Assembly: GCA_019240115.1 (NCBI GenBank)
Contig: JAFAYV010000028.1
Location: forward strand, 1 to 34,324
Length of the DNA: 34,324 nucleotides
Source of the DNA: Solirubrobacterales bacterium
GTDB lineage: Bacteria; Actinomycetota; Thermoleophilia; Solirubrobacterales; Solirubrobacteraceae
Direction: 5' to 3'
Shown here piece by piece: positions 4,810 through 11,105 of the stretch; the stretch's first letter is position 1; every line of letters starts with the position of its first letter. The position numbers were made by a program, and so were the translations under genes. A model generated the notes under the pieces. That model saw only the letters and a program-made list of their open reading frames with translations, was not told where the DNA came from and did not search any database.

Positions 4810-4908
4810 CGTCACTGTTTCGGCCCCGGGGGCCGGCGATCCTGCCCGGGCGGCGGCCCGGGAGCCACCTGCCAACATCATTGCCAACCCGATGCAGCTC
4901 GCCCCCGG

Positions 4909-5062
4909 AACCCAGCGCCTCCGCGAAGCCTCGGCGGTCGGAACGGAGCGCCCCCGCGAAGTTGGAACCGAGCGCCCCCGCGAAGCCTGGGCGGTCGAAA
5001 CCCAGCGCCCCCGCGAAGCCTGGGCGGTCGGAACCCAGCGCCTCCGCGAAGCCTCGGCGATG
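4909..5062. repeat. Tandem repeat, 33-bp unit, about five copies, upstream of proline dehydrogenase
   Basis: Units start at 4909, 4942, 4966, 4999 and 5032. The best unit begins AACCCAGCGCCCCCGCGAAG and ends CCTGGGCGGTCGG. The second copy is 24 bases because an internal nine are missing, and the last runs into the region just before the proline dehydrogenase ATG at 5068. CCCAG and CTGGG within the unit at 4999 can pair into a small hairpin. The remaining part of this intergenic region (4810-4908) shows nothing I can assign. Confidence 0.9.
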
Positions 5063-8030: not shown

Positions 8031-8119
8031 GGTTGACGTGCCGCCGGGGGCGGTTGACGTGCCGCCGGGCGGCGGTTTGACGCCCCGCCGGGCGGCGGTT
8101 TGACGTGCCGCCGGGCGGC
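8031..8119. repeat. Tandem repeat, 21-23 bp unit, four copies, each with TTGACG and a GC palindrome
   Basis: Copies start at 8031, 8052, 8074 and 8097 and read GGTTGACGTGCCGCCGGGCG with small length changes. Three carry GTTGACGTG or TTTGACGTG, while the third has TTGACGCCC. Copies 2 to 4 contain CCGCCGGGCGG, a short inverted repeat that could fold. The array fills the gap between the P5C dehydrogenase stop and the small membrane protein. Whether it ends transcription, starts it or does neither is not shown by sequence. Confidence 0.88.
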
Positions 8120-8151
8120 GGTTCATCATTTCCGTGGAGGTGGTCGTCACG

Positions 8152-8535
8152 ATGTCACCTGTCGTCCGGATCGCGTTCGCGATGGGCCTGCTGCTGGCGG
8201 TGCTCGTCAGCGTCCGCGCCCGTGCGCCCGGTCGCGCCGTGACCGGCGCCGACCTCGGCAGGCTCGTCGCGGGGGCGCTGCTGCTCTACGGCGCCGGCGC
8301 GGCGGCCGTGCTGACGCATCGCTCCGCGCTCGCCGCGCCCGCCTTCGCCGGTGGGATCGGCGTCGCGGCGCTCGCCGCCTGGCTGTCGCGCGGCCACGAC
8401 CAGGACGATCCCCCGAGCGGCGGCGACCCCCTCGACGACCCGACCCCGCCGGCGCCGGGCTTTGACTGGGAGCGCTTCGAGCGCGACTTCCGCGACTGGG
8501 AGACCGGTCACCGGACGCCCGCCGGGCGCGTCTAG
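8152..8535 (+). CDS. Small membrane protein of unknown function
   Basis: I do not recognise this 127-residue protein. It has three hydrophobic stretches: IAFAMGLLLAVLVSV (about 6-20), VAGALLLYGAGAAAVL (38-55) and AFAGGIGVAALAAWL (63-79). A hydrophilic acidic tail follows, ending FDWERFERDFRDWE, so the tail may pair with another protein. The ATG at 8152 is preceded by GGAGG at 8136-8140, eleven bases away. A GTG at 8134 is in frame and would add six residues. Its stop codon overlaps the convergent pdxT stop by four bases. Confidence 0.65.
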   Translation: MSPVVRIAFAMGLLLAVLVSVRARAPGRAVTGADLGRLVAGALLLYGAGAAAVLTHRSALAAPAFAGGIGVAALAAWLSRGHDQDDPPSGGDPLDDPTPPAPGFDWERFERDFRDWETGHRTPAGRV

Positions 8536-9320
8536 ACGTCCGCGCCCCTCACGCTTGCCGGCGCGTCGATCAGCCCGAGCAGGAGCGCGTGGAGTCGTGG
8601 CTCGCCGGTCAGCTCGGGATGGAAGGAGACCGCGATGACCGTGCGCTCGCGGACGGCCACCGGATGCTCGTCGACGGCAGCGAGCACCTCGACGCCCTGA
8701 CCGACCTCGGCGACCCAGGGCGCGCGGATGAACACCGCGTGGAGCGGCCCACCGGGAACGCCGGCGATGTCGAGGTCGGCCTCGAAGGAACGCAGCTGGC
8801 GCCCGAACGCGTTGCGCTGCGCGCGCACGTCGAGCACGCCGAGGTGGTCGCGGTCGAGCATGATCAGTCCCGCGCACGTCCCGAGCACCGGGGTGCCGGC
8901 GGCGGCGAGCTCGCGCAGCGGGTCGCCGAGGCCCTCGCGCTCGATCCCGAGCGACATGACGGTCGACTCGCCGCCGGGCAGGACGAGGGCGTCGAGGCCG
9001 GTGAGGTCGGCGGGGATGCGGACCTCACGCGGCTCGGCGTGCAGGCCACGGAGGATCCGCGCGTGCGCCTCGAAGTCCCCCTGGAGCGCGAGCACGCCGA
9101 CGTTCGGCCGGTGAGCGGCGTGCCGGCAGTCATCGGCGTTCGGGCGCTCACCCGCGTTCAGGCGCTCACCGGCGTCTGGGCGGTCACCCGCGTTCGGGCG
9201 CTCACCGGCGTCTGGGCGGTCACCGGCGTTCGGGCGGTCACCGGCGTTCGGGCGGTCACCCGCGTTCGGGCGCTCACCGACGACCGACCGGCCGCCGGCA
9301 CCCGGATTGGGCGGGAGCAC
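8532..9320 (-). CDS. pdxT: Pyridoxal 5'-phosphate synthase glutaminase subunit PdxT with repetitive N-terminal extension
   Basis: From residue 74 this is a normal PdxT: VGVLALQGDF, PGGEST (115-120), GTCAGLIML with nucleophile Cys149, and SFHPEL with the catalytic His. It releases ammonia from glutamine for PdxS. The unusual part is residues 1-73: a short leader, eight hexapeptides of the form GERPNA/GDRPNA (15-62), a decayed copy DDCRHA and AHRPN. The GTG at 9320 lies two bases after the pdxS stop, which favours it as start. The only in-frame start codon near the core is GTG at 9095, inside VGVL, which would clip the first strand. The family is about 190-200 residues; this form is 262. Whether the extension is translated is inference from the open frame and tight coupling. 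Confidence 0.9.
   Translation of the reverse strand: MLPPNPGAGGRSVVGERPNAGDRPNAGDRPNAGDRPDAGERPNAGDRPDAGERLNAGERPNADDCRHAAHRPNVGVLALQGDFEAHARILRGLHAEPREVRIPADLTGLDALVLPGGESTVMSLGIEREGLGDPLRELAAAGTPVLGTCAGLIMLDRDHLGVLDVRAQRNAFGRQLRSFEADLDIAGVPGGPLHAVFIRAPWVAEVGQGVEVLAAVDEHPVAVRERTVIAVSFHPELTGEPRLHALLLGLIDAPASVRGADV
9135..9278. repeat. Tandem repeat, 18-bp unit, eight copies, in frame within pdxT
   Basis: Eight contiguous 18-base units run from 9135 to 9278. The plus-strand unit is GGCGTTCGGGCGCTCACC with a few variant positions (GTT/GTC, CTC/GTC, first base G or C). On the minus strand each unit encodes Gly-Asp/Glu-Arg-Pro-Asn/Asp-Ala (one Leu for Pro). A decayed ninth unit lies at 9117-9134. 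No indel has disturbed the 18-base period, and the variants change one residue conservatively or are silent, as expected if the repeat is translated. Confidence 0.95.
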
Positions 9321-9322
9321 GG

Positions 9323-10228
9323 CTACCAGCCGCGCGCGGCGAGCAGCTGCTCGGACTCGAGCTTGGAGGTCTCGAGGCTGGCCATCGGATGGCCGAGGCC
9401 GTGACTGGCCGCCGCCACTCGCGTGGGATCGCGGTAGTGGGTGGTGGCCTCGACGATCGCCCGGGCGCGGGGCGCGGGGTCATCGGACTTGAAGATGCCC
9501 GAGCCGACGAACACGCCCTCGGCCCCGAGCTGCATGACGAGCGACGCGTCGGCCGGCGTGGCGATCCCCCCCGCGCAGAACAGGACGACGGGGAGCCGGC
9601 CCTCGGCAGCGACCTGGCGCACGAGGGGCAGCGGAGCGCCGAGCTCCTTGGCCGCCGTGGCCAGCTCCTCGGGCCCGAGGACGGTCAGGGCGCGGATCTC
9701 GGTGCGGATCTTGCGCAGATGGCGGACCGCCTCGACGATGTCGCCGGTCCCGGCCTCGCCCTTGGAGCGGATCATCGCCGCCCCCTCGCCGATCCGTCGC
9801 AGCGCCTCGCCGAGGCCGGTGGCGCCGCAGACGAACGGGACCTTGAAGTCCCACTTGTCGATGTGGTTGGCCTCATCGGCGGGCGTCAGCACCTCGGACT
9901 CATCGATGTAGTCGACCTCGAGCGCCTCGAGCACCTGGGCCTCGGCGAAGTGCCCGATGCGCGCCTTGGCCATCACCGGGATCGTCACCGCCTCCTGGAT
10001 CCCCTGGATCATCGCCGGGTCCGACATCCGCGCGACGCCGCCGTCGCGGCGGATGTCGGCGGGCACGCGCTCGAGCGCCATGACCGCGGCGGCACCCGCG
10101 TCCTCGGCGATCCTCGCCTGCTCGGCCGTGACGACGTCCATGATGACGCCGCCCTTGAGCATCTCGGCGAGGCCCGCCTTGACGGTGAAGGTCGCTTCGT
10201 CGCGCGGCGTGTCGCCGTTGTCGGCCAT
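9323..10228 (-). CDS. pdxS: Pyridoxal 5'-phosphate synthase lyase subunit PdxS
   Basis: This 301-residue protein is a clear PdxS. Lys88 in [11 protein letters not shown] and Lys156 in [12 protein letters not shown] are the two catalytic lysines, and [20 protein letters not shown] is the family start. It condenses ribose 5-phosphate, glyceraldehyde 3-phosphate and ammonia to PLP inside a dodecameric ring, with ammonia delivered by PdxT, the next gene. Length is normal. A minus-strand TACACT box (10236-10241) ends seven bases before the ATG, so the message is probably leaderless. The promoter lies within 46 bases shared with the divergent thioesterase-like gene. Confidence 0.97.
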
Positions 10229-10235
10229 GGCGGCC

Positions 10236-10267
10236 AGTGTAGCCGCGCCACGCGCGCCCGCTAGGTT
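10236..10267. promoter_or_regulatory. Divergent leaderless promoters of pdxS and the thioesterase-like gene
   Basis: TACACT on the minus strand (10241-10236) sits seven bases from the pdxS ATG. TAGGTT on the plus strand (10262-10267) sits seven bases from the ATG at 10275. Both fit a TANNNT -10 box at the distance expected when transcription begins at or beside the start codon. Neither gene has a Shine-Dalgarno sequence in the gap. No clear -35 was found. Confidence 0.55.
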
Positions 10268-10274
10268 GACGGCG

Positions 10275-11105
10275 ATGATCCCCGAGGCGGTCTTCGTCCG
10301 CGACGGCATGGGCTTTGCGGCGACCGAGCTCGCGCTCGGACCGTGGGCGCCGGGCGCTCTGCACGGCGGCGCGCCCGCGGCGCTGCTCGCGCGGGAGTTC
10401 GTCGACTTCGCGCAGGGCGCGCCGCTGCGCCCCGCGCGGATCACCTACGAGTTCATCCGGCCCGTCATGCTCGGGCCCCTGTCCGCGCGGATCGAGGTCG
10501 TCCGCCCGGGCCGCCGTGTGACGCTGCTCGACGGCTTCCTGCGCGACGGCGACGGCGTCGAGGTCACGCGCGCCCGCGCGCTGCTCCTGGCGCCCGCCCC
10601 GTTGAGCGCCGGCGAGCTCGAGCCGCCGCCGTTCCTCGGTCCCCAGGACGGCGAGCCGACCGACTGGTCGTTCCCGACGCCGATGTTCGCCACCCACGCG
10701 ATGGAGATCCGCCTCGTCGAGGGCGCCCTGCGCCGGCCGGGTCCCGCGGTGGCCTGGTTTCGCCTCCGCCAACCGGTCATCGCCGGTGAGGCGCCCGCCG
10801 GGATCGAGCGGATCGCCGCTGCCGGAGACTTCGGCAACGGCATCGGCTCCGAGCTCAGCTGGGAGGACCACTCGTTCATCAACGCCGACCTCACCCTCTC
10901 GGTCCAGCGCGACCCCGTGGACGAATGGGTGGCGCTGCAGTCCCGGATGCGGGTCGTGCAGGGCAGCGTCGCCGTCGCCGAGAGCGTGCTCTGGGATCGC
11001 GAGGGCCGCATCGGCCACGCCCTCCAGTCGCTGCTGGTCGCGCGCGAGGACCGCGGCGCGGACGCCGGCAGCGGCGGCCCGCCTATTTCAGGCGGAAGGC
11101 CTTGA
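10275..11105 (+). CDS. Acyl-CoA thioesterase-like (double hot-dog) protein
   Basis: This 276-residue protein looks like an actinobacterial TesB-like double hot-dog thioesterase. The N-terminal half has [46 protein letters not shown] and a [24 protein letters not shown] strand; the C-terminal half has [24 protein letters not shown] and [14 protein letters not shown]. The HGGAPAALL helix is characteristic of acyl-CoA binding hot-dog folds. The substrate is unknown. The start is supported by the -10 box seven bases upstream. The 3' end overlaps the convergent RpiR gene by 23 bases. Confidence 0.8.

What the first reader, a model, noticed from the sequence alone, without database searches (positions are those of the whole stretch)
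9099..9320. PdxT carries an in-frame N-terminal array of eight hexapeptides
Seen: GTG two bases after the pdxS stop, then eight 18-bp units encoding GERPNA/GDRPNA-type hexapeptides, a decayed ninth, then the normal PdxT core. Period and frame are intact and variants are conservative. Known: PdxT is usually about 190-200 residues and docks on the PdxS ring. Inference: the charged, flexible arm is translated and may affect docking or be a tolerated byproduct of repeat expansion. I know of no PdxT with such an arm.
Basis: partly seen in the sequence, partly recalled or inferred. Interest (0 to 1): 0.75.

Follow-up and report, generated by a model that had tools for sequence, protein, structure and literature searches.

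The report
PdxT with tandem-repeat N-terminal arm
A vitamin B6 enzyme subunit (PdxT) in a soil-type actinobacterium has gained a floppy, repeat-encoded arm of about 73 residues at its start; the arm is almost certainly made, but it looks like a tolerated by-product of a genome that is full of expanding short DNA repeats rather than a new device.

Summary
On the minus strand, GTG (9320-9318) lies two bases after the pdxS stop (TAG). Eight 18-bp units (9278-9135) follow, flanked by decayed copies (9296-9279, 9134-9117, 9116-9099), then an intact PdxT core. The arm is very probably translated: 9320 is the only ATG/GTG/TTG in frame upstream of the core, the next (9095) would remove most of the first core strand, and a second frame carries TGA in nearly every unit. 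It is not unprecedented in kind. Congeners have unrelated, disorder-type PdxT arms of 4-32 residues in a conserved frame, set by a GTG overlapping the pdxS stop (GTGA) in 11 of 26. Another family member has its own 57-bp x2 in-frame duplication at this junction. The window's genome is rich in tandem arrays (309 per Mb against 90 and 185 in two congeners); the pdxT array ranks 8th of 258 in a 21% sample, and others extend conserved proteins outside their domains, e.g. ribosomal protein bL21. AlphaFold2 gives a disordered arm and a confident core. Best reading: slippage-driven, in-frame expansion at a permissive N-terminus, translated and roughly neutral. Functional tuning, as in NeuO or LeuA, is possible but unsupported.

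The parts
9323..10444 (-). pdxS (PLP synthase subunit), ends RGW-TAG at 9323; the ORF start given is the longest and probably too long
   Evidence: Pfam SOR_SNZ 6.8e-105
8532..9320 (-). pdxT ORF, 262 aa, GTG start 9320, stop at 8532
   Evidence: TIGR03800 8.5e-59 over residues 74-247; PF01174
9102..9320 (-). N-terminal arm, 73 residues, predicted disordered
   Evidence: (pLDDT about 41-52)
9279..9296 (-). strongly decayed upstream repeat unit (GGRSVV, 11/18)
9135..9278 (-). eight 18-bp units, G(E/D)R(P/L)(N/D)A
9117..9134 (-). decayed unit 9 (DDCRHA, 14/18)
9099..9116 (-). unit 10 (AHRPNV, 14/18), overlapping the first core residue V74
8535..9101 (-). PdxT glutaminase core (VGVLALQG...), Cys and His/Glu catalytic motifs present

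Best explanation
The array is an in-frame minisatellite that grew by slippage or unequal exchange at the pdxS-pdxT junction, where the PdxT N-terminus is free to vary. Start and frame are set by a GTG beside the pdxS stop, so every junction insertion of a multiple of three bases becomes part of PdxT. Here it yields a translated, disordered arm of about 73 residues that hangs off a normal PdxT core and is most likely roughly neutral. Shown: the array, its frame, the lack of other starts, the variable arms in relatives, the repeat load of the genome, the predicted disorder. Inferred: translation itself, slippage as mutational cause, neutrality.
For: Only one canonical start upstream of the core. 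GTG 9095 would remove three of five residues of strand 73-77. A second frame has TGA in nearly every unit. Edges decayed, middle homogeneous, pair order repeated, as expected of slippage. Congener arms 4-32 aa, unrelated in sequence; gap 2 mod 3 in 23 of 26, and in 12 of 15 whose pdxS stop is not TGA (binomial p 0.0003 against 1/3, relatedness ignored); GTGA overlap in all 11 TGA cases. Other junctions with tandem duplications have periods 57, 12, 33 and 12, all multiples of three. Genome-wide array density 309/Mb against 90 and 185; 16 arrays of score 200 or more in 834 kb. Other in-frame arrays lie mostly outside conserved domains: bL21 tail, macro-domain N-terminus, DivIVA and ABC C-tails, Rho linker. 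PDB chains with extra N-terminal residues sit in assembled complexes.
Against: No peptide or ribosome data. No close relative (the nearest congener PdxT cores are 75-78% identical), so copy-number change and neutrality are untested. The 18-bp units stayed in phase without indels and kept their charge pattern, which mild selection would also give. Only 21% of the genome was sampled for arrays, and not at random.
Confidence: 0.8

Rival explanations
1. The arm is functional: a charged disordered tail whose length tunes PdxT docking on PdxS, solubility or activity, with copy number as the dial, as in NeuO or LeuA.
For: Repeat number changes catalysis in E. coli NeuO (PMC3046976) and kinetics and leucine inhibition in M. 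tuberculosis LeuA (PMC2704214). The array is uninterrupted and in frame, with alternating charges.
Against: No conservation of arm sequence or length in the genus; no similar peptide elsewhere in the genome above weak low-complexity matches; similar arrays extend unrelated proteins; extra N-terminal residues are present in solved complexes.
Confidence: 0.12
2. The arm is not translated: PdxT starts at GTG 9095 or at a non-canonical codon near the core, and the array is an untranslated spacer.
For: No strong Shine-Dalgarno site at 9320 (duplex -4.8 kcal/mol) and a GTG exists at 9095; some relatives start 2-4 residues before the core.
Against: 9095 has a weaker site (-1.7) and would cut strand 73-77; many relatives lack a GTG at that codon; frame and stop pattern.
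Confidence: 0.06
3. Assembly artefact: the array or its copy number is wrong.
For: The genome is a fragmented assembly of 99 contigs, and repeats are prone to collapse.
Against: Units are of five types in a non-trivial order, flanks are unique and both neighbouring genes are intact; an array of about 200 bp can be spanned by reads. Collapse could only understate the copy number.
Confidence: 0.02

Closest known systems
PdxT/YaaE/Pdx2 glutaminase of the R5P-dependent PLP synthase (TIGR03800, PF01174; 2nv2, 4wxy, 2iss)
   Same: Core sequence, fold and catalytic motifs; gene order pdxS-pdxT
   Different: 73-residue repeat-encoded N-terminal arm instead of the usual few residues
M. tuberculosis LeuA (alpha-isopropylmalate synthase) with a 57-bp VNTR (PMC2704214)
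   Same: Biosynthetic enzyme with an in-frame tandem array of a period divisible by three
   Different: Copy-number polymorphism and an effect on kinetics are shown there; neither is known here
E. coli K1 prophage NeuO poly-psi domain (PMC3046976)
   Same: N-terminal disordered arm of tandem peptides, translated from a DNA tandem repeat
   Different: A 7-bp unit gives on/off phase variation there; an 18-bp unit cannot shift the frame. Activity rises with heptad number there; unknown here
Designed PLP synthase with a circumsporozoite antigen fused to Pdx2 (PDB 9cca)
   Same: At least 118 residues ahead of the Pdx2 core in an assembled particle
   Different: Engineered, not natural

Membership tests
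PdxT (PLP synthase glutaminase) | Equivalog profile match above cut-off | tested here: met
   198.6 bits against 105.55
PdxT (PLP synthase glutaminase) | Cys-His-Glu catalytic triad motifs (GTCAG, HPE) | tested here: met
   C149, H234, E236 invariant in the alignments
PdxT (PLP synthase glutaminase) | Adjacent pdxS | tested here: met
   SOR_SNZ protein ending at 9323
PdxT (PLP synthase glutaminase) | Core fold | tested here: met
   Foldseek 4wxy_F E 5.3e-22, 45% identity
PdxT (PLP synthase glutaminase) | Docks on PdxS and supplies ammonia | not testable with these tools
   needs biochemistry
Coding VNTR enzyme (LeuA/NeuO kind) | In-frame tandem array within the ORF | tested here: met
Coding VNTR enzyme (LeuA/NeuO kind) | Copy number differs between strains | tested here: inconclusive
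   No same-species genome found; congeners lack the array
Coding VNTR enzyme (LeuA/NeuO kind) | Repeat number changes activity | not testable with these tools
   needs enzyme assays

The most novel reading that the evidence does not exclude
The arm is a length-tunable disordered tether that changes how PdxT docks on the PdxS ring, with repeat number as an evolvable dial on PLP synthesis.
Probability: 0.08. Interest if true: 0.6.

Novelty: new member of a known kind. Interest (0 to 1): 0.3.

Why it matters
It shows a core vitamin-synthesis enzyme absorbing a tandem-repeat expansion at its N-terminus, in a lineage where such expansions extend many conserved proteins. The wider point is the genome: a natural set of in-frame repeat arms on conserved proteins (PdxT, ribosomal protein bL21, Rho, DivIVA) in which the tolerance and possible use of new disordered tails could be measured.

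Tried and rejected
A dispersed DNA element sharing the unit: a second 18-bp array in the same genome (C30:5580-5723, 74% similar, L032) shares GGTGACCGCC but is read in another frame (PVTAAK); the 10-mer is not over-represented (42 seen, 41.7 expected), so I take the likeness as chance in GC-rich DNA. A shared protein motif: only weak low-complexity hits. A structured RNA leader: folding z-score -2.24, modest, and any self-similar GC-rich array can pair; only one imperfect 17-nt inverted repeat was found; not pursued. ProDH in the window as another arm-bearing enzyme: an ATG directly after its 33-bp array makes that array probably 5' leader. Literature: no paper held both 'PdxT' and 'N-terminal extension', and a search for the 9cca paper gave none.

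Full report
What is there. The window is a whole 34,324-base contig of a 4.03-Mb assembly in 99 contigs, 95.6% complete. Records whose lengths match congener contigs bear the titles Conexibacter sp. S30A1 (3,458,291 bases) and a Solirubrobacterales MAG, so the organism is a Solirubrobacterales actinobacterium (inference from these titles). On the minus strand pdxS ends ...GGC TGG TAG (9323), two bases follow, then GTG (9320). The ORF to 8532 encodes 262 residues: a 73-residue arm and a PdxT core. The arm holds eight 18-bp units (9278-9135), a decayed ninth (9134-9117), a tenth (9116-9099) that runs into the first core residue, and a weak copy on the other side (9296-9279). The core is a normal PdxT by profile, motifs and predicted fold.

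Is it translated? Between GTG 9320 and the core there is no other ATG, GTG or TTG in frame, and none upstream back to the previous in-frame stop. The next one, GTG 9095, is valine 76, inside the first predicted strand (73-77); many relatives have GTC or ATC there, so it is not a conserved start. A second frame through the array meets TGA in almost every unit and the third meets one stop; only the pdxT frame is open. Neither start has a strong Shine-Dalgarno site, which fits coupling to pdxS. Translation is therefore very likely but is an inference.

What relatives show. In 26 genomes of the genus with a readable junction (the window's included), arms before the VGVLALQG core measure 4, 4, 4, 4, 4, 4, 6, 6, 10, 11, 11, 12, 12, 13, 13, 16, 17, 17, 17, 17, 19, 22, 24, 31, 32 and, in the window, 73 residues. 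They are rich in A, G, P, S, T, D, E and unrelated in sequence. The distance from the pdxS stop to the core is 2 mod 3 in 23 of 26. In all 11 genomes with a TGA stop, the sequence TGGTGA provides a GTG overlapping the stop. In the 15 with other stops, 12 keep the same frame (binomial p 0.0003 against one third; shared ancestry is not corrected for). A likely history is that the overlap set the frame, and changes of the stop moved the start a few codons downstream. In 60 further family members most arms are 1-21 residues by the same mechanical rule, which can pick too early a start where the gap is long. G134 (L187) has a 57-bp tandem duplication, 93% identical, reaching almost to the core, although a GTG inside its second copy leaves its start open. 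Shorter tandem duplications appear at the junction in L158 (12 bp), L194 (33 bp) and L006 (12 bp, repeating the first core codons); every one of these periods is a multiple of three.

What the genome shows. In 834 kb of this genome (21%) there are 258 tandem arrays, 309 per Mb, against 90 and 185 per Mb in 400-kb samples of the congeners G011 and G015; 16 score 200 or more, and the pdxT array is 8th. Among arrays of score 120 or more inside coding-like ORFs, most periods are multiples of three. Several lie in conserved proteins outside the Pfam domain: the C-terminal tail of ribosomal protein bL21 (L219, 42 bp x2.8, directly before rpmA), the N-terminus of a macro-domain protein, the C-tails of DivIVA, an ABC ATPase and a GT2 glycosyltransferase, a linker in Rho, and the N-terminus of an aminotransferase; one, in an amidohydrolase, falls inside the domain. 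PdxT is thus one case of a genome-wide process. The sample was chosen from contigs known to be long, not at random, and ORFs were called by a simple GC-position rule.

How it most likely works. Slippage or unequal exchange lengthens GC-rich repeats. At the pdxS-pdxT junction, insertions of a multiple of three bases merely lengthen an N-terminal tail that is already free to vary; others would break the frame of the gene. The arm is predicted disordered (pLDDT about 41-52 against 92-97 for most of the core). Docking is unlikely to suffer: the PdxT chains of solved PdxS-PdxT complexes have 20-32 extra N-terminal residues in their deposited sequences (2iss_D, 4wxy_B), and a designed Pdx2 fusion with at least 118 residues ahead of the core assembles (9cca_G). 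The decayed edges, homogeneous middle and repeated unit pairs in the array fit this origin.

Comparison. It is a PdxT by every test that could be run. As a coding tandem array in an enzyme it works like a known kind: LeuA of M. tuberculosis, where 14 against 2 copies changes substrate affinity and feedback inhibition (PMC2704214), and NeuO of E. coli K1, where an unfolded N-terminal heptad array raises catalytic efficiency with length (PMC3046976). Those cases keep a functional reading alive, but copy-number variation and functional effect are untested here. I found no report of such an arm on PdxT, within an open-access library only.

Noticed in passing
L219:9122-9586 (-), own genome C41:9122-9586: Ribosomal protein bL21 carries a C-terminal tail of a 14-residue unit (ATATEGVSDRA...) x2.8 encoded by a 42-bp array, ending directly before rpmA (bL27).
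   Followed up: partly
window 8033-8123: Intergenic 23-bp array (4 copies) after the aldehyde dehydrogenase-like ORF; period not a multiple of three, as expected for non-coding DNA.
   Followed up: no
window 4906-5059: 33-bp array (about 4.9 copies) before the proline dehydrogenase domain; an ATG directly after it suggests it is 5' leader, not protein.
   Followed up: partly
own genome C30:5571-5734 (L032, L212): 18-bp array (9.4 copies) encoding PVTAAK-type hexapeptides inside a 596-aa predicted protein (membrane-like) without a Pfam match; shares GGTGACCGCC with the pdxT unit in another frame.
   Followed up: yes
L187:489-602 (G134): Independent 57-bp x2 in-frame tandem duplication at the pdxS-pdxT junction of another genus of the family.
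   Followed up: partly
L226:8427-8696 (own genome C52): 23-bp array of 11.8 copies, the second-highest-scoring array in the sample; same period as the intergenic array at window 8033.
   Followed up: no
L135: Serinicoccus sediminis PdxT has a 24-residue arm with an internal DEQPA/DEQPT repeat, starting at a GTG that overlaps the pdxS stop.
   Followed up: no
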